Below, piece after piece: positions 1 through 12,662 of a stretch of DNA of 13,442 bases. The notes beneath the pieces are model-generated. The model was given only the letters and a program-made list of their open reading frames with translations. It was not told the origin of the DNA and ran no database searches. This DNA comes from CAVPRW01 sp046727435 [NCBI: bacterium] (GTDB lineage Bacteria > Tectomicrobia > Entotheonellia > J063), in contig JBKPCR010000443.1 of assembly GCA_046727435.1 (NCBI GenBank), positions 1 to 13,442 on the forward strand, given 5' to 3'. How positions within the stretch are numbered: position 1 is the first letter of the stretch; each line of letters starts with the position of its first letter. Made by a program: the position numbers and the translations under genes.

Positions 1-1619
1 CGTCTTGTTTGCTTGCCAATCTCATCAACCATCTTGCTGAACAGTCGAAAGCGGTTGCCGCCGATGTCATATCCATTGATATAAAGAGCTATCAAAAAGC
101 CCAGCAGCTGCGGGTTACGGGATGCGATGGAGGCGGTTCGCGAACGAGCTAGCATCTTCAAAAAGGTACTGCACATGTCCTGAGCCTGGTCTGAATCGGT
201 TGGATACACCAGGTTGAAAATAGCTTCCGCTAATTCACTGACATCAGATGATCCAAGCGGTAGGAGTTCGCCGTGTTCCCATCCGTCAAACCAAGCCGGA
301 TTGTGTCCGACCGGACGAGTTGTTAAGACGACTCGCCGGTCCGGATGCGCAAGTGCCCAACTTCTGAGTCTGTCCGCAACGTGAGAGCGGTTTGGATCTG
401 TTTCATCTAACCCATCGGCTAACAGGCAGGACGCATTCCGGAGCACGTTATAGAGTGTCTCGGATACATGGGGGAAACCTTCCGAGGCAACGGCCAATAT
501 GGCTTCATCAAGGGTTTCCCCTCTACTCATCCGCAAGGCCAGGGCTCGAAGGGAAACTCGTAAGACCACCTGTCCCCTGGTGGACCATGTATGCGCTAAC
601 CACCGTAACAGAGTGCTTTTCCCTGAGCCCGGACCTCCGACTATCACCAATAATTGCTGGTTGCGCGCCGCCTTCTCAATATCGAGTGCATCCGATCCCA
701 GCGTGTTATCGGCGAGACGATACCATTCATGGTAATTCAGAATCTGGTCGGTTATGGAGCTGGAATCGCCCACCCGTTCTTTGGAGGCCATGGTGCGGAG
801 ACGAACCCATGCCTTAGATATCGGGAGTGTAACATCCAGACTCGGAATCACGATTTTTGCGTTCACTCTGGTGCACCATTCTGTGAATGCCTGGCGGAGC
901 ACCAGCTGATTCGTTGTGGCCACTGATAACGGAATGGGGGCCTGTTTGAGCATCTTTGCAAGGCCGGAGGCGTCGCAATTCCCCCTAAGTTTGATGAGAT
1001 CGAGGCCATCAGCGACGAGGACAGTTCTCGCTGCCCCAGCCATTTGAGGGTCGGCAATCACCTTCCTCAGTGTCGCGAGAGTTTCTTCTTCGCCTGGTGA
1101 TCCAGGATCAAGGTCTCGAATCACAATGCGGATGCGCGAACAGATAGACAAATCCTTAAATCCAGCATCCTGCAGGCGTTTGCAGAAATCTTCGACGATC
1201 TCATGTAATTCATCTGCGATGCCTTGACCGACTTGTATAATGCCATCCTTCAAATACACGCGGATCGGCCTGCTCGCATCCGTGGTCGTGAGGAGAACTC
1301 CATAAATGTCAGGGGCCGTGCTGACCACTTGGGCGAGAGCCAACAGCGCATGCCATAGGTCATAGCCTCTTTTGAGGCCACGCTTGGCCTGAAGCTCGAT
1401 CTTTGCACCACTGCGCAGCGTGATTTGAAGGTCATCTCCTCCTCTTCCTGTCTCCACACGGACGGAGACAGGTACTCGGTCGCACCCTGTCTCCAGCCAA
1501 TTCAAACCCTCTTCGGCCAGAATCTTGGCGGATACCAAGGCATAGGCCTCGGCCTGATAATCGTAGCCGCCACCGCCGGCACTTCCTCCGAATGGGTTCC
1601 TTCGTTTCTCAAGATTCAT
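1..1619 (-). CDS. NACHT-family NTPase with N-terminal nuclease-like domain (Avs/bNACHT-type), 3' end outside window
   Basis: I translated this frame by hand: it is open from ATG 1619 to the window edge, giving 539 codons with no stop. An in-frame TAG at 1635-1637 lies just upstream of the ATG. Residues 15-80 look like a PD-(D/E)xK nuclease core: a GGYDYQ motif (17-22), an acidic pair D62-D63, then IELQAK (74-79) as the Q-x-K arm, as in Mrr/Cap4-like nucleases. Residues 324-510 are a NACHT ATPase: Walker A GGPGSGKST (328-336), Walker B LLADGLDE (399-406) with the NACHT-type small residue and second acid, a sensor-like VVLTTRP (430-436), and an NPQLL motif (502-506) typical of the post-ATPase winged-helix region. 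The C-terminal sensor, often TPR or other repeats, would lie beyond the left edge. By family knowledge such proteins sense phage products and switch on nuclease activity. The NACHT call is firm; the nuclease and antiviral role are inferred. Confidence 0.85.
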   Translation of the reverse strand, partial: MNLEKRRNPFGGSAGGGGYDYQAEAYALVSAKILAEEGLNWLETGCDRVPVSVRVETGRGGDDLQITLRSGAKIELQAKRGLKRGYDLWHALLALAQVVSTAPDIYGVLLTTTDASRPIRVYLKDGIIQVGQGIADELHEIVEDFCKRLQDAGFKDLSICSRIRIVIRDLDPGSPGEEETLATLRKVIADPQMAGAARTVLVADGLDLIKLRGNCDASGLAKMLKQAPIPLSVATTNQLVLRQAFTEWCTRVNAKIVIPSLDVTLPISKAWVRLRTMASKERVGDSSSITDQILNYHEWYRLADNTLGSDALDIEKAARNQQLLVIVGGPGSGKSTLLRWLAHTWSTRGQVVLRVSLRALALRMSRGETLDEAILAVASEGFPHVSETLYNVLRNASCLLADGLDETDPNRSHVADRLRSWALAHPDRRVVLTTRPVGHNPAWFDGWEHGELLPLGSSDVSELAEAIFNLVYPTDSDQAQDMCSTFLKMLARSRTASIASRNPQLLGFLIALYINGYDIGGNRFRLFSKMVDEIGKQTR

Positions 1620-2368: not shown

Positions 2369-2716
2369 TTACGATTTTTTCTCTCTCTGGATGATGGATT
2401 CAATCTCGTGCCGGAGCGTTGGCATCTTGGTGGTCACGACATCCCAGACAATGTCATAATCCACTCCCAGATAGTTGTGGATCAGGCGGTCACGCATCCC
2501 CGCCATTGCTCGCCATTCGATGTGATGATACTTTCCCCTAAAGTCATCAGGTATCAGCTTCGTTGCTTCTCCAATGATGTCCAAACTGCGAACAAAAGCA
2601 TGCTTCAGTGTTTCATCCCGTGAAAACTCGGCTTTGGTCACTCCGTTGGCGCAATCCATCAAGTACTGGGTCTCATTGAGGATGTGCTGTAGGAACCCCA
2701 GCATCGAACGTGACAT
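2369..2716 (-). CDS. hepT: HepT-like RNase toxin (HEPN/DUF86) of a type VII toxin-antitoxin pair
   Basis: This is a 115-residue, mostly helical protein. RDRLIHNY (75-82) is the family's RX4HXY catalytic motif (R75, H80, Y82), characteristic of HEPN ribonucleases of the HepT/DUF86 group. The start (MSRSMLGFLQHILNE) and the segment RSLDIIGEATKLIP (43-56) fit the family, as does the length. I chose ATG 2716 because a GAGG ribosome-binding site ends about six bases upstream; 2704 is an alternative. The start lies inside the end of the upstream MntA-like gene (44-nt overlap), implying translational coupling. By family knowledge HepT cleaves RNA and is silenced when MntA adds AMP to the motif tyrosine, here Y82. 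Confidence 0.92.
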   Translation of the reverse strand: MSRSMLGFLQHILNETQYLMDCANGVTKAEFSRDETLKHAFVRSLDIIGEATKLIPDDFRGKYHHIEWRAMAGMRDRLIHNYLGVDYDIVWDVVTTKMPTLRHEIESIIQREKKS

Positions 2717-3008
2717 ATTCGACCTCGGACAAAATGTACGGGCCAAGATACGGGCTAAGGGACTTAGGAGTCACCAGTTCCACGGGCCTATCAAAAAGGG
2801 CTTCCAGAAAGAAGGCGAGTTCCATGAAGTTATCAAATGTCTTGCACCCAAGCATAAAGTCAACTAACAGGTCGACGTCGCTGTCCATTGTTGGGTGCCC
2901 ATGTCGAAAAGAGCCAAATAGCCCGAGCCGTTGGACGCCCAAGGCGCTGATGTGCGCGTGATGGCCTTGTAACAGAGCCATGATGTGTTCTTTTGTTTGA
3001 ACAGCCAT
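2673..3008 (-). CDS. mntA: MntA-like nucleotidyltransferase antitoxin
   Basis: This 111-residue minimal nucleotidyltransferase carries the signature GS-x10-D-x-D: G32 S33, then D44 V45 D46. The third catalytic acid is probably E77 in RPVELVT (74-80). These residues bind two Mg2+ ions and ATP in the MNT fold. The antitoxin lies upstream of and overlaps its toxin partner, as in many type VII MntA-HepT modules, where MntA adenylylates the HepT tyrosine. The start at ATG 3008 is supported by AGAGGA about eight bases upstream; longer open frames upstream lack a comparable site and do not resemble the family. A strong promoter lies about 170 bases upstream, leaving an unusually long leader. Confidence 0.92.
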   Translation of the reverse strand: MAVQTKEHIMALLQGHHAHISALGVQRLGLFGSFRHGHPTMDSDVDLLVDFMLGCKTFDNFMELAFFLEALFDRPVELVTPKSLSPYLGPYILSEVEYVTFDAGVPTAHPQ

Positions 3009-3178
3009 GGAGTTTTTCCTCTGCGATGTCTTGTGAATTCCTGCGTAGTTCCTCGCATGTCCCGCATACTCCAAGCCCGGATGTCCGCCTTTGGGAGAAG
3101 GTGTTTTCAATCATGTTGGAGCAACGATGGGAATAGTCAAGTAGCTCTTCGCTTCACGCCGTCGAATGTTTTGGCACC

Positions 3179-3436: not shown

Positions 3437-4474
3437 ATGGCTACGACCATCGACGAAGCACTGGACATCATCCACCGCACCGGCCCGGATTTGGTCGGTG
3501 GTAATTCCAACCATGGTCCCATGGTCGCCGAGGTCCTGTTGACCCTGGGTCGCCCCGGCTCGGTGATGCCCTGGATTGAGGGGTATAAGAACCGCTTCCA
3601 GGACCGACCGCAGCCAGACACCCCCATCTCCCCCAGGAGCTGGCATGAAGCCCTCGGCGACAGAAGCCGTAGCGCTGATTGGGTAGCCTTCTTCGACCAC
3701 GAACTAGCAGAGAAGCCCTGGCAGTCGGTGCTGCAGGCGTGGGTGCCACACCTGGCCCCCGGACTCATGGCCGCCGCGACCCATGGGCTCATCCGCACAG
3801 GCCACGCGGTCCGCAGTCTGGCGGCGGGGGAAACGCCACAGCGACTGCACGAGTTAGCCGAGGGGCTAGGCTACTGGGGCGCCCGCTATCAGGAAATGCC
3901 AGGGAGACCATCAGGCAGTCAAATTGGACACTCACCCAGAGAGGCGGTCCAGTTTGTGGGACGCGTCCACAGTGGCGATTTCGATCCACGTGGAGCGATC
4001 GTGCAGCAACTCAAAGGTCTGGAAGAACACCCGGAATTTGCCGCTGCGATCGATCTGGTGGACACCACGAGCGACCTTTCGCGGTATATCTCAGAGATCA
4101 CCGAGACCTTCGCGGGGATCTATCTTGCCAACCCGACGGGGTTGATCGCCTTTGTGCATGCAGTCACCGCCCCCAGCGCGCTCCGGCTGTTGGCATCCTA
4201 TCTCACCGATGCCGATGCTCGGCTAGCCGCGCGATACGCCTGGCAGGCGTGCGCTGGCATCTACGCCTGGTATTCGACGACACCACCTCTATCACCCTCG
4301 GGCTTCATGCCACCCACAGAAGCCCCCGAAACCTTGATTGACCGCGCAGTGGCCGCTGGCGGCGCGCACACCATCAAGTTCACCGAGGCATGCCTGCGAG
4401 AATATGCATTGAATCCTCAACCGGTATACTTGGTTGCGGCCCGAGACGCCGCCGAACGCGTGGGGCGAGTGTAG
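3437..4474 (+). CDS. Questin oxidase-like family protein (DUF4243 type)
   Basis: The protein has 345 residues, the usual length for bacterial members of this family. Recognisable blocks are SNHGPM (24-29), a W-x-E-AL-GD segment (69-75), WVPHLAPGLMAAATHG (102-117) followed by IRTGHAVRSL, YWGARYQEMPG (146-156), FVHAVTAPSALRLL (239-252) and HTIKFTEACLREY (311-323). The histidines in these blocks (H26, H116, H123, H241, H311) are conserved by memory of the family and could bind a metal or cofactor. Fungal relatives (GedK, AflY) cleave the anthraquinone ring of questin or act in aflatoxin assembly by a Baeyer-Villiger-like oxidation without a classic flavin motif. The bacterial substrate is unknown. 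The start has a strong GAAGGAGA site. The gene is alone on its strand and converges, with a 25-bp gap, on the glycosyltransferase gene. Confidence 0.85.
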   Translation: MATTIDEALDIIHRTGPDLVGGNSNHGPMVAEVLLTLGRPGSVMPWIEGYKNRFQDRPQPDTPISPRSWHEALGDRSRSADWVAFFDHELAEKPWQSVLQAWVPHLAPGLMAAATHGLIRTGHAVRSLAAGETPQRLHELAEGLGYWGARYQEMPGRPSGSQIGHSPREAVQFVGRVHSGDFDPRGAIVQQLKGLEEHPEFAAAIDLVDTTSDLSRYISEITETFAGIYLANPTGLIAFVHAVTAPSALRLLASYLTDADARLAARYAWQACAGIYAWYSTTPPLSPSGFMPPTEAPETLIDRAVAAGGAHTIKFTEACLREYALNPQPVYLVAARDAAERVGRV

Positions 4475-8889: not shown

Positions 8890-8991
8890 ACACCAGCCCA
8901 GAGGAGGTCTGGGGTGCGGAGACTCCACAGAATCACGCCGCAATGAGGCTGTCATACGGCAGTGGTCAGGAAGCAACGAGAGGAAGCGAGT

Positions 8992-9846
8992 ATGGAATTC
9001 GGGGCAGCAATCTTCTTTACAGACTATACCATGGGGCCGGTTGAGCTTGGACGCGCGCTCGAGGAGCGTGGCTTCGAATCACTCTGGGCCCCTGAGCACT
9101 CGCACATCCCGCTGTCGCGTCAGTCGCCGTTTCCGCAGGGCGGCGATCTGCCGAAGAAGTACTACGATGTGATGGACCCGTTCGTGACGCTGGCGGCTGC
9201 CGCGGCTGCGACGACGCGGCTGAAAGTGGGCACGGGCATCTGCCTGGTCGTTCAGCGTGATCCGATCCAGACGGCAAAGCAGGTCGCCAGTCTCGACCAG
9301 ATCTCGGGGGGCCGCTTTTTGTTTGGCATAGGCGCCGGCTGGAACGCGGAGGAGATGGCCGATCATGGGACCGTTTTCGCGTCGCGGTTCAAGCTCATGC
9401 GGGAGCGGGTCGAGGCCATGAAGGCGATCTGGACGCAGACCAAACCCGAGTACCACGGTGAGCTCGTCTCATTTCCGCCGATGATGACGTGGCCGAAGCC
9501 GGTGCAGAAGCCCCACCCACCGGTGATCGTTGGCGGCGCCTATCCCTACGGAGCACGCCGCGCGATCGCCTATGGCGACGGCTGGGTGCCACACGCCCGC
9601 CGTCCAGCCTACGGCGACGTGCTCAATCTTTTACCCGACTTCAAGAAGATGGCGACGGCAGCCGGGCGTGACCCCGCAACTATCCCGATCACGATCTTCG
9701 GCGTGGCCGAGGACCTGGACCTGATCAAGCGCTACCGCGATGCCGGTGTGGCCCGGCTGGTCTTCAACCTGCCACCGGCTCAGGCCGACGAAGTGCTGCC
9801 GCTTCTTGACCGCTGTGCGCGGCTGATGCAGCAGACGCACGCCTGA
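8992..9846 (+). CDS. LLM-class F420- or FMN-dependent oxidoreductase
   Basis: This 284-residue luciferase-like monooxygenase-family barrel is of the short Rv2161c-like F420 type. Signatures are the N-terminal GRALEERGFESLWAPEHSHIP (20-40), RLKVGTGICLVVQRDPIQTAKQVASLDQISGGRFLFGIGAGWNAEEM (76-122), the R-x-EAMKAIW stretch (139-147) and KPHPPVIVGG (173-182). The GAGWN block and the RDP-TAKQVA-LD block are diagnostic. By family knowledge it transfers hydride between F420H2 or FMNH2 and a small organic substrate; which cofactor cannot be told here. GAGAGGAAG just upstream supports ATG 8992; the frame also extends to 8962 without a better site. It lies 191 bp upstream of the GrdE-like gene on the same strand, so it may take part in the same pathway. 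Confidence 0.93.
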   Translation: MEFGAAIFFTDYTMGPVELGRALEERGFESLWAPEHSHIPLSRQSPFPQGGDLPKKYYDVMDPFVTLAAAAAATTRLKVGTGICLVVQRDPIQTAKQVASLDQISGGRFLFGIGAGWNAEEMADHGTVFASRFKLMRERVEAMKAIWTQTKPEYHGELVSFPPMMTWPKPVQKPHPPVIVGGAYPYGARRAIAYGDGWVPHARRPAYGDVLNLLPDFKKMATAAGRDPATIPITIFGVAEDLDLIKRYRDAGVARLVFNLPPAQADEVLPLLDRCARLMQQTHA

Positions 9847-10037: not shown

Positions 10038-11300
10038 ATGCGTTTGACCCTTGCTTACCACCCGGTCACTGATATACGCTTCGGCGCCACCACACAGTTG
10101 CAAGGCACTACTCTTGAGATCTCCGAGGCAGCCTTGCGTCAGTATCTCTTGAAAGATCGCCGGCTCCAGCGCGTGGACTTGGCCATCGTGCACCCAGGTG
10201 AAGCCTGTCGCTTTGGCGTGGTGTTTGACATCGTGGAACCACGGGCCAAGGAACCAGATGCCAGCCCTGATTTTCCAGGCATTTTAGGTCCGATTGCCAG
10301 GGTTGGACAGGGGATCACCCATGTCTTGCAGGGGGCAGCGGTCACCGTCCTGGATGCGGCAGCGCCTGTCGCCGGAGGCCAGATGGTTGAGATGAGCGGT
10401 GACGCCGGGAAGGCCTGCCCCTATGCGGCTTTGGCACATCTGGTCGTCGTCCCGCATGTCGTCCCAGGGCTGGAACGACCTCGGGCGCTGCATGCGCTAC
10501 GCCTCGCGAGCGTGAAGACAGCCGTTTATCTGGGACATACGGCTATGCGCCATACCGCAGCCAACAGCGCAGTTTTTGAAAGCCTGGGGCCAGTCGAGGC
10601 CAGCCGCCCGGGGCTCCCGCGCCTCGCCTACATTGGTCAGATTCATTCGCGGCAACGGGTGGCCGAGGTTGACGAACAAATCCTCTATGGCGCCAACACT
10701 GCAGGCATGGCACCAGTACTGCTGCACCCTAACGAATGGCTGGACGGCGCGCTTGTCACCAGCTATTTTAACCGTGCGGTGGAGACCTATTTTTACCAGA
10801 ATCACCCGGTGATCATCGAACTCTACCGCTGGCATCGCGAGGGCAAAATCACGCTGGTTGGGACCATTGCCACCATGGCCGGTTCTGATAACGACGATCG
10901 CACCAGAAACGCTATGCTGGCAGCCCATCAGGCGAAATGGAGTCTGGCGGCTGAGGGTATCATTCTAACCAAGTACGGGGGCGGAGCGCCGCACGCCGAT
11001 ATGGCGTTAACGGCGAAGCTGTGTGAGGAGCTTGGTATGCGCACGGCGGTGCAGGCATCCGATATGTCCCAGGACCGCCGGGCCGAGTCAGCGCTGCTGT
11101 TCAATGATGCTGAGGTCGATGCGATTGTGTACGTCGGGGGCAATGACACGCGCTGGACCGTTCCGGCGGTCCCACGGGTGATTGCTGGCACTCCTGAGGC
11201 GGCAGTGGCACTGCAGGCCGCCCAAGTGCTCGACGCCGGGAGGCTCTGTGGCGTGACCAACCAACAGGGGGCTTCCCATCTGCGCGCCTTTGTGCATTAA
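10038..11300 (+). CDS. GrdE-like protein, component B proprotein-type subunit of a glycine/sarcosine/betaine reductase family enzyme
   Basis: The protein has 420 residues, close to clostridial GrdE. It aligns from memory along its length: MRLTLAYHPVTDIRFG (1-16), RRLQRVDLAIVHPGE (41-55), IVEPRAK (65-71), PNEWLDGALVTSY (231-243), NHPVIIELYRWH (255-266), AAEGIILTKYGGGAPHADM (304-322). In GrdE a cysteine near residue 242 becomes a pyruvoyl group when the chain is cut. Here no cysteine exists between 237 and 260; Thr241-Ser242 occupies the place. Either serine is the precursor or the protein has no pyruvoyl. I chose ATG 10038 because family proteins begin here; the open frame continues upstream to 9870. 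GAAGG lies just two bases away, a tight spacing. It is followed by the GrdB-like gene after 75 bp, its expected partner. Confidence 0.9.
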   Translation: MRLTLAYHPVTDIRFGATTQLQGTTLEISEAALRQYLLKDRRLQRVDLAIVHPGEACRFGVVFDIVEPRAKEPDASPDFPGILGPIARVGQGITHVLQGAAVTVLDAAAPVAGGQMVEMSGDAGKACPYAALAHLVVVPHVVPGLERPRALHALRLASVKTAVYLGHTAMRHTAANSAVFESLGPVEASRPGLPRLAYIGQIHSRQRVAEVDEQILYGANTAGMAPVLLHPNEWLDGALVTSYFNRAVETYFYQNHPVIIELYRWHREGKITLVGTIATMAGSDNDDRTRNAMLAAHQAKWSLAAEGIILTKYGGGAPHADMALTAKLCEELGMRTAVQASDMSQDRRAESALLFNDAEVDAIVYVGGNDTRWTVPAVPRVIAGTPEAAVALQAAQVLDAGRLCGVTNQQGASHLRAFVH

Positions 11301-11334: not shown

Positions 11335-11375
11335 CCCGGAGCAGTGTTAGGGAGGCTGTGCAAGGAGGTCTCATC

Positions 11376-12662
11376 ATGCGTATCGTATACTATCTGAACC
11401 AGTTCTTTGGCGGACAAGGGGGAGAGGAAGCGGCGCACCTGGCCCCGCACATCCAGGATGGAGCCGTTGGCCCAGGACGCCTGTTAGAGCAGGTCCTGGG
11501 AGCCGGGGCACAGGTCGTGCGGACCATCGTTGTGGGTGACAACTATGCCGCCGAACATGTCGAGAGCCTGAGTGCCGTGGCGGTGCAAGAAGTCCAACAG
11601 TGCCAGGCCGACCTGTTCGTGGCTGGACCGTGTTTTGAAGCCGGGCGCTACGGTATGGCGGCGGGGGCCCTGTGCAAGGCCGTTAAAGCCGCGCTCGGGG
11701 TCCCGGTGATCACCGCTATGGCAGTCGAAAACCCTGGTGTGGATATGTATCGCTCGGATATCTATATCGTTGATTCCGGCGCCCAGGTCCAGGCCATGCG
11801 GGATATCCTGAGCACCATGGCGCGTCTCGCCTGGAAGCTTATCAACAATCAGGCCATCGGTCGGCCAGGCGAGGAAGGCTACATTCCACAGGGGATTTTG
11901 CGAGACGATTTTGTCGAGCCCAGCGCTGCCGAACGCCTGGTGGCCATGGTGTATGCCAAGACCACCGGACAGCCCTTTGAGTCCGAGTTCACGCCGCCAA
12001 CGTTCTCACCGGTTCCGGCCCCAGCCCCCGTTCTGGACCTCTCCAAGGCCAGAGTGGCTCTGGTCACGGATGGCGGTCTGGTTCCCAAAGGCAATCCGGA
12101 TAAGATTTCCCCCTATGCCGCCACCAACTGGGGCTCCTACGACATCGCTGGCCTCGATGACCTGCACGGGGAGGACTACGAAGTCTCGCACCGCGGCTAT
12201 GACACCCGCTATGTAGAGCAGGACCCGGACCGGCTGGTGCCGGTGGATGTGCTGCGTGAGCTCGAAAAAGCCGGGGTGGTTGGCAAGTTGCATGACTGTT
12301 TTGTCTCGACGTCGGGGCTCGCCAACCCGATCGCCAATAGTCGCCGTCTAGGGCGGGAGATTGCCGAGAAGCTCAAAGCTGAAGGGGTGGAGGCCGTGAT
12401 TCTCACCTCCACGTGAGGCACTAGTACTCGCAGCGGTGCTGCGATCACGACTGAGCTCGAAAAGGCCGGTATTCCCGTCGTCCAGGTCACCTCGGTCATG
12501 CCAGTGGCCAAGATGGTCGGCTCCAACCGCATTGTGCAGGGCGGTGGCATTGTGCACGTGCTTGGTGATCCCGATCTACCCCAGGAAGAAGAAAAGAAGC
12601 TGCGGCACGATATCCTCAAACGCGCCTTTGACGCCCTACAGCACACCGCCGACAATGGCTGA
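11376..12662 (+). CDS. GrdB-like selenoprotein B of the glycine/betaine/sarcosine/D-proline reductase family, UGA decoded as selenocysteine
   Basis: The full product is 428 residues with selenocysteine at 347 (TGA 12414-12416), ending at TGA 12660. Without recoding it would stop after 346. The N-terminus YYLNQFFGGQGGEE (5-18), GDNYAAE (54-60), FVAGPCFEAGRYG (81-93), ENPGVDMY (118-125) and the late VPKGNPDKIS stretch match GrdB. The Sec context ILTST-Sec-GTSTRSGA matches the family motif TST-U-GT, and the frame after it continues with ELEKAGIPVV, GSNRIV and LGDP blocks as in GrdB. Canonical GrdB has Cys at Sec+3 and Sec+6; here both are Ser. By family knowledge the Sec attacks a substrate amine, bound with a pyruvoyl on GrdE, and releases it reductively. 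The start has a strong AAGGAGG site (11362-11368), eight bases before ATG 11376. It is co-transcribed with GrdE-like upstream and the thioredoxin-fold gene downstream. The substrate is unknown. Confidence 0.95.
12412..12449 (+). promoter_or_regulatory. Bacterial SECIS element directing selenocysteine insertion
   Basis: TCGCAGC (12428-12434) and GCTGCGA (12438-12444) form a perfect 7-bp stem with the three-base loop GGT. Counting the U of UGA as 1, the loop G and U are at 23 and 24, the same numbering recalled for the SelB-contacting bases of the E. coli fdhF element. A second pairing, CGTGA (12412-12416, containing the UGA) with TCACG (12445-12449), could place the UGA at the base of the structure, with an 11-base bulge on the 5' side only. 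The upper stem is convincing; the lower one may be chance. SelB is expected to bind the loop and deliver Sec-tRNA. Confidence 0.85.
12414..12416 (+). other. In-frame UGA read as selenocysteine (Sec347)
   Basis: The TGA is in frame with both the upstream ATG (11376) and the downstream 81 family-like codons, and falls where GrdB carries its catalytic Sec. Automatic gene callers would end the gene here. Confidence 0.93.

What the first reader, a model, noticed from the sequence alone, without database searches (positions are those of the whole stretch)
11376..12662. Selenocysteine-containing GrdB-like protein hidden by an in-frame UGA, with SECIS hairpin
An in-frame TGA at 12414 falls at the catalytic Sec of the GrdB family, the downstream 81 codons continue the family sequence to a normal stop, and a perfect 7-bp hairpin with a GGU loop follows at the distance expected for a bacterial SECIS. 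A standard caller gives a truncated 346-residue protein and leaves the last 246 bases unannotated. Selenoprotein B outside the clostridial amino-acid fermenters is poorly understood.
Basis: partly seen in the sequence, partly recalled or inferred. Interest (0 to 1): 0.85.

Follow-up and report, generated by a model that had tools for sequence, protein, structure and literature searches.

The report
Variant glycine-reductase-type selenium protein
A gene that looks broken by a stop signal most likely makes a selenium-containing enzyme subunit of a known family, but it belongs to an unstudied branch with an altered active site and a thioredoxin-like neighbour gene.

Summary
Observation confirmed. 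Window 11376-12662 encodes a 428-residue selenoprotein B (GrdB family) with selenocysteine at UGA 12414-12416. TIGR01918 matches residues 2-423 at 485.8 bits, cut-off 65.45. UGA occupies the same column in 44 of 44 rows compared. Codons behind it are under purifying selection. The hairpin 12428-12444 is a compensated SECIS: 43 of 44 rows keep six Watson-Crick pairs; synonymous recoding gives at most 3 such rows. The window's genome is not held; of eight genomes carrying the same clade, 7 have tRNA-Sec and 7 SelB over cut-off.

So it is an ordinary hidden selenoprotein of a known family. Less ordinary is its branch: one clade, support 100/100, with UxxSxxS instead of UxxCxxC, a GrdE-like partner without the pyruvoyl Cys (9 of 9 rows), and a DUF255 thioredoxin-like gene nearby at 8 of 10 loci. 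Published fluoroacetate FarEB shares both Cys losses. Most likely role: a substrate-specific B component feeding GrdA/GrdC, for a substrate that needs no Schiff base. The substrate is unknown.

The parts
11376..12662 (+). GrdB-like selenoprotein B, 428 aa, Sec at residue 347; end includes stop TGA
12414..12416 (+). in-frame UGA read as selenocysteine
   Evidence: 44 of 44 rows have TGA at this column; UGA is an ordinary stop for other window ORFs
12428..12444 (+). SECIS hairpin, 7 bp, loop GGU
11362..11368 (+). AAGGAGG, Shine-Dalgarno-like, 7 bases before the ATG
   Evidence: read from the sequence
10038..11300 (+). GrdE-like alpha subunit, 420 aa; no Cys at the pyruvoyl column; start set by homologues (MELTL.., MQLTL..)
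   Evidence: PF09338 246 bits
12673..13442 (+). DUF255/thioredoxin-like protein (WCGYC), runs off the window end
   Evidence: PF03190 85.7 bits, PF13899 55.6 bits; linked in clade relatives
8989..9846 (+). luciferase-like (LLM) F420-type oxidoreductase upstream; whether it belongs to the cluster is open
   Evidence: TIGR03619 263.1 bits; a luciferase-like gene also lies near the pair in L100

Best explanation
Shown by sequence evidence: 11376-12662 is a selenoprotein of the GrdB family whose UGA 12414 is read as selenocysteine through a SECIS hairpin just behind it. Inferred: with the GrdE-like subunit (10038-11300) it forms a substrate-specific B component of a glycine-reductase-type complex. 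The Sec selenolate displaces a leaving group from the alpha carbon of a small acid, and the resulting selenoether is passed to GrdA and GrdC to give an acyl phosphate. Because the partner lacks the pyruvoyl-forming Cys, the substrate is more likely one activated without a Schiff base (as for betaine or fluoroacetate) than a primary amine such as glycine. Because both Cys of UxxCxxC are Ser, re-reduction of an oxidised Sec probably depends on an outside thiol; the linked DUF255 thioredoxin-like protein is the candidate (speculative).
For: TIGR01918 485.8 bits over 2-423 of 431. UGA column 44 of 44. Selection behind the UGA. SECIS compensation and slid-partner control: 263 of 264 Watson-Crick cells in register, at most 111 when slid. 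SxxS clade of 8 rows, 100/100. In G001 the clade's GrdE is the only PF09338 match of the genome, and the pair lies on the same contig within 3 kb of a GrdA with one TGA and of GrdC. Of the 8 clade genomes: GrdA in 7, GrdC match in 8, over cut-off in 7, tRNA-Sec over gathering in 7, SelB over cut-off in 7. Thioredoxin-like orthologue of 51% identity or more in 7 of 8 clade genomes and 0 of 13 others.
Against: No genome for the window, so its own Sec machinery, GrdA and GrdC are untested; no GrdA hit in the window (one valid query). In G001 GrdA and GrdC are on the opposite strand to the pair, so not in one operon with it; in G412, G415, G416, G417 and G419 they are on other contigs than the clade pair. 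In G001 the thioredoxin-like gene is not linked and the best match is 42%; the G003:C284 locus has none within the stretch fetched. Lack of the pyruvoyl Cys is not special to the clade: by my reading, 30 of 46 GrdE rows lack the N-C pair. Substrate, leaving group and product are not indicated by any test.
Confidence: 0.65

Rival explanations
1. It is a selenoprotein reductase that works without GrdA/GrdC, like D-proline reductase: the selenoether is resolved directly by a thiol, here the linked DUF255 thioredoxin-like protein, and no acyl phosphate is made.
For: Thioredoxin-like gene near the pair at 8 of 10 clade loci, orthologue in 7 of 8 clade genomes versus 0 of 13 others; in five clade genomes the pair is on another contig than grdA; G418 has no GrdA match. 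[quoted passage not shown]
Against: GrdA present in 7 of 8 clade genomes; in G001 the pair is near GrdA and GrdC, and its GrdE is the only PF09338 match. PrdB equivalog score 92.1, cut-off 300.
Confidence: 0.22
2. The UGA is a true stop; the protein is a 346-residue truncated enzyme or a decaying pseudogene (a B component without UxxCxxC was called a likely pseudogene in PMC6778437).
For: Below-gathering SECIS_4 score; unremarkable fold energy; loss of UxxCxxC; PMC6778437 passages.
Against: UGTSTRSG in 8 of 8 clade rows, selection behind the UGA about as strong as before it, SECIS compensation, a good Shine-Dalgarno-like site.
Confidence: 0.03
3. UGA is reassigned genome-wide (for example to Trp).
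For: One in-frame UGA is read through.
Against: UGA ends the P450, the LLM, the 2673-3110 ORF and this gene itself; the position is the family's Sec column.
Confidence: 0.01

Closest known systems
Selenoprotein B family, TIGR01918 / PF07355 (GrdB, GrdF, GrdH)
   Same: Full-length homology, Sec at the same column, T-U-G and R-x-G around it invariant in 31 rows, GrdE-like gene directly upstream
   Different: UxxSxxS instead of UxxCxxC; below the cut-offs of GrdB (435.5/602.2), GrdF (485.6/800) and GrdH (441.1/775)
Fluoroacetate reductase FarEB of Cloacibacillus porcorum (PMC10838667, results section read)
   Same: FarB lacks the CxxC behind Sec and FarE lacks the two Cys for the pyruvoyl group, as reported there
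   Different: FarE equivalog score 153.5, cut-off 675; no radical-SAM or transporter match among the ten window ORFs scanned, though relative L100 has an MFS gene near the pair; FarB letters were not at hand, so kinship was not tested
Betaine reductase GrdH/GrdI
   Same: GrdI-type partners L075 and L077 also lack the N-C pair
   Different: Those GrdH rows keep UxxCxxC and lie on a separate branch
Rfam SECIS_4 (RF01990)
   Same: Same place, stem and loop; three canonical grdB loci given reach 51.1-64.2 bits
   Different: Window 15.9 bits; inner stem CGCAGC/GCTGCG instead of CGTTGC/GCAACG. Seven clade loci given list none, but a match of 15.9 bits would not have been listed in a search of that size

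Membership tests
Selenoprotein B family (TIGR01918) | Whole-protein score over the curated cut-off | tested here: met
   485.8 bits, cut-off 65.45
Selenoprotein B family (TIGR01918) | UGA/Sec at the conserved column | tested here: met
   44 of 44 rows
Selenoprotein B family (TIGR01918) | UxxCxxC behind Sec (described for grdBFH in PMC6778437, passages) | tested here: not met
   UGTSTRSG; 23 of 44 rows have UxxCxxC, so the motif is not universal in the family and its lack does not exclude membership
Glycine reductase GrdB (TIGR01917 equivalog) | Score over equivalog cut-off | tested here: not met
   435.5 of 602.2
Glycine/sarcosine-type GrdE/GrdG partner | Internal N-C for the pyruvoyl group | tested here: not met
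   0 of 9 clade rows; 16 of all 46 rows have it
Fluoroacetate reductase FarEB | FarE equivalog cut-off | tested here: not met
   153.5 of 675
Fluoroacetate reductase FarEB | Defluorination of fluoroacetate | not testable with these tools
   needs an enzyme assay
Bacterial SECIS | Conserved hairpin shortly behind the UGA with compensatory changes | tested here: met
Rfam SECIS_4 | Gathering score 38 | tested here: not met
   15.9 bits
Sec-decoding organism | selA, selB, selC, selD in the same genome | tested here: inconclusive
   Window's genome not held. Clade genomes: tRNA-Sec 7 of 8, SelB 7 of 8, SelA 2 of 2 tried; SelD not tested

The most novel reading that the evidence does not exclude
The clade is a new substrate class of B component: a selenol-dependent reductive cleavage system for a non-amine alpha-substituted acid, in uncultured Chloroflexota and a Nitrospinota-labelled phylum, in which Ser has replaced both protective Cys and a dedicated DUF255 thioredoxin-like protein reduces the Sec. 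Its SECIS changed in step with the Cys-to-Ser change and with a Thr-to-Ala change in the protein.
Probability: 0.35. Interest if true: 0.6.

Novelty: new variant of a known kind. Interest (0 to 1): 0.4.

Why it matters
Gene calling by the standard code truncates such proteins, and Rfam SECIS_4 stays below its threshold on the window. The clade marks a B component with an unknown substrate, in lineages that I do not know (recall) as amino-acid fermenters, and gives a natural test of whether the UxxCxxC cysteines are needed: here, as reported for FarB, they are absent in conserved genes.

Tried and rejected
Own-genome test of selABCD: impossible, no genome held. PF07355 for the part behind the UGA: the model ends there. 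Solved relatives: none by sequence (the profile search gave one match at E 0.93 to a designed protein). An AlphaFold model of the window protein with 24 rows (mean pLDDT 90.6) gave no convincing PDB match (TM-score by query length at most 0.24 in the 50 rows shown of 1515), so no mechanism was drawn from it. Viral contigs: no relative. True stop, pseudogene and UGA-reassignment readings rejected; two of its three queries (GrdA from L038 and GrdC from L119) were read on the wrong strand by me and say nothing; only the GrdA query from L106 counts. Rows left out of the 44: local hits at 35% identity or less, hits ending at or before query residue 400 (among them L042, a full-length relative whose local hit ended at 398; one search shows one TGA in it), duplicates, and fragments without the Sec column (L050, L086/L024, L105). 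L129 was found later and is not in the 44.

Full report
Observation. Reading 11376-12662 with UGA as Sec gives 428 residues and a terminal TGA. The ORF list stops at 12416. Pfam PF07355 matches residues 1-346 at 437.6 bits and ends there because the model is 347 positions long. TIGR01918, the selenoprotein B model of NCBIfam, matches residues 2-423 with its positions 1-422 of 431 at 485.8 bits against a cut-off of 65.45; the protein is below the cut-offs of the glycine, sarcosine and betaine models.

Is the UGA Sec? Forty-four distinct rows, from the window, the phyla of G001 (Dehalococcoidia by record title) and G004 (Nitrospinota by record title), Photobacterium, a Lachnospiraceae MAG and three Firmicute plasmid records, all have TGA at this column. 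In the 400-genome sample of the phylum of G001, 16 of 16 matches that span the column at 36% identity or more contain one TGA; among the more distant, partial matches (34% or less) several that span the column have no in-frame stop, so non-Sec cousins exist further off; at most four candidates a genome were scored there (my count). In the 18 genomes of the phylum of G004 it is 17 of 17 at 39% or more (my count). Against seven clade relatives, pN is 0.19-0.30 and pS 0.66-0.74 behind the UGA, and 0.26-0.28 and 0.67-0.81 before it; pS is near saturation. UGA is an ordinary stop for other ORFs of the window.

SECIS. Energy alone is not unusual (z -0.66). Comparison is decisive. Six inner pairs are Watson-Crick in 263 of 264 cells, 43 of 44 rows full; pair 17-27 (bases counted from the U of UGA as 0) is T-A in 30 and C-G in 14 rows, pair 18-26 T-A in 28 and A-T in 16. 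Random synonymous recoding gives 0.3 full rows on average and 3 at most in 2000 runs. Sliding the partner by 1-3 bases leaves at most 111 cells and no full row. The rows are related (12 are Photobacterium), so the counts are not independent. The change from the Cys codon TGC to the Ser codon AGC flips one pair and is matched by GCA to GCT; CGT to CGC goes with Thr to Ala. Three canonical grdB loci match Rfam SECIS_4 at 51.1-64.2 bits (3 of 3 given); the window gets 15.9. Seven clade loci list none, but so weak a match would not have been listed in a search of that size.

Clade. Eight rows share UGTSTRSG and form one clade with support 100/100; motif counts in the 44 rows are UxxCxxC 23, UxxSxxS 8, UxxGxxS 8, other 5. 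A ninth piece, L129 of G003, has the same motif. GrdE-like partners of the clade are 52-67% identical to the window's, all others 37% or less. In the column where clostridial GrdE/GrdG rows read GNC, 9 of 9 clade rows lack Cys; by my reading 16 of 46 rows have the N-C pair, so its lack is common in the family. C. difficile GrdE carries a Cys-derived pyruvoyl (PMC9908766, passages).

Neighbourhood. The DUF255/thioredoxin-like gene with WCGYC starts 10 bases behind the stop of GrdB in the window. In G412, G415, G416, G418 and G419 an orthologue lies upstream of GrdE; in G417 the same order is seen on contig C44, with another ORF between GrdE and GrdB; in G003 the end of a GrdB with the same motif is followed by the orthologue on contig C33, as in the window. 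It is not near the pair in G001 or at G003:C284, in the stretches fetched. That is 8 of 10 clade loci, if the G003 pieces C111 and C33 are one locus, which is not shown. By genome, an orthologue of at least 51% identity (N-terminal 256 residues) is in 7 of 8 clade carriers and in 0 of 13 other genomes examined; those have 32-36% relatives or none (G002). Near the pair in L100 lie FAA-hydrolase, AMP-binding, MFS, luciferase-like, 2-hydroxyacid-dehydrogenase, MmgE/PrpD and hydantoinase-type genes; they suggest catabolism of a small acid but do not name it.

Machinery. The window's genome is not held. In the eight carriers (G001, G003, G412, G415-G419): GrdA with one TGA in 7 (none in G418), GrdC match in 8, 7 over cut-off, tRNA-Sec over gathering in 7 (not G415), SelB over cut-off in 7 (G415 207.8 bits, starting at a contig edge), SelA in G001 and G003 (not tried in the other six). 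SelD was not tested. Weak matches to tRNA-Sec and SelB ring in all 14 control genomes, so only those over the cut-off count. The genomes are drafts in many contigs, so absences mean little.

Literature. UxxCxxC is described for grdBFH, and a copy without it was called a likely pseudogene (PMC6778437, passages). FarB lacks the CxxC and FarE the two Cys (PMC10838667, results section), so both losses are already in print for a strongly induced operon. The carboxymethyl selenoether and its transfer to proteins A and C are described there and in PMC10298544 (passages); PMC13188914 (passages) describes the three components. I saw no paper on this clade or on a GrdEB-thioredoxin cluster in the listings shown (20 of 201; 12 of 21; 4 of 4; 10 of 44); these cover open-licence papers only.

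Verdict. A correct, well made observation of an ordinary kind of hidden selenoprotein; the variant clade with its linked thioredoxin-like gene is the part worth keeping.

Noticed in passing
G002 (L002, L019 and other loci): One Chloroflexi MAG has 18 PF09338 (GrdE-like) matches but no GrdA match and only a partial GrdC: many B components without a found A component.
   Followed up: partly
L003 1585-1672 (-): tRNA-Sec gene about 3.3 kb before the Photobacterium grdB, so selC and a grd gene lie close together.
   Followed up: no
window 2369-3110 (-): Two overlapping short ORFs that look like a HEPN and nucleotidyltransferase (MNT) pair, a toxin-antitoxin type; recognised from memory, not tested.
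   Followed up: no
window 3-1619 (-): NACHT-domain NTPase (PF05729, 46.6 bits) running off the window start, possibly a defence protein.
   Followed up: no
window 3437-4474 (+): Questin-oxidase-like protein (PF14027, 52.8 bits) near P450, glycosyltransferase and FMN-dehydrogenase genes.
   Followed up: no
L092-L098, L047: A second GrdB branch has UxxGxxS (8 rows); its SECIS stem is CGCAGC/GCTGCG or the half-way form CGTAGC/GCTACG.
   Followed up: partly
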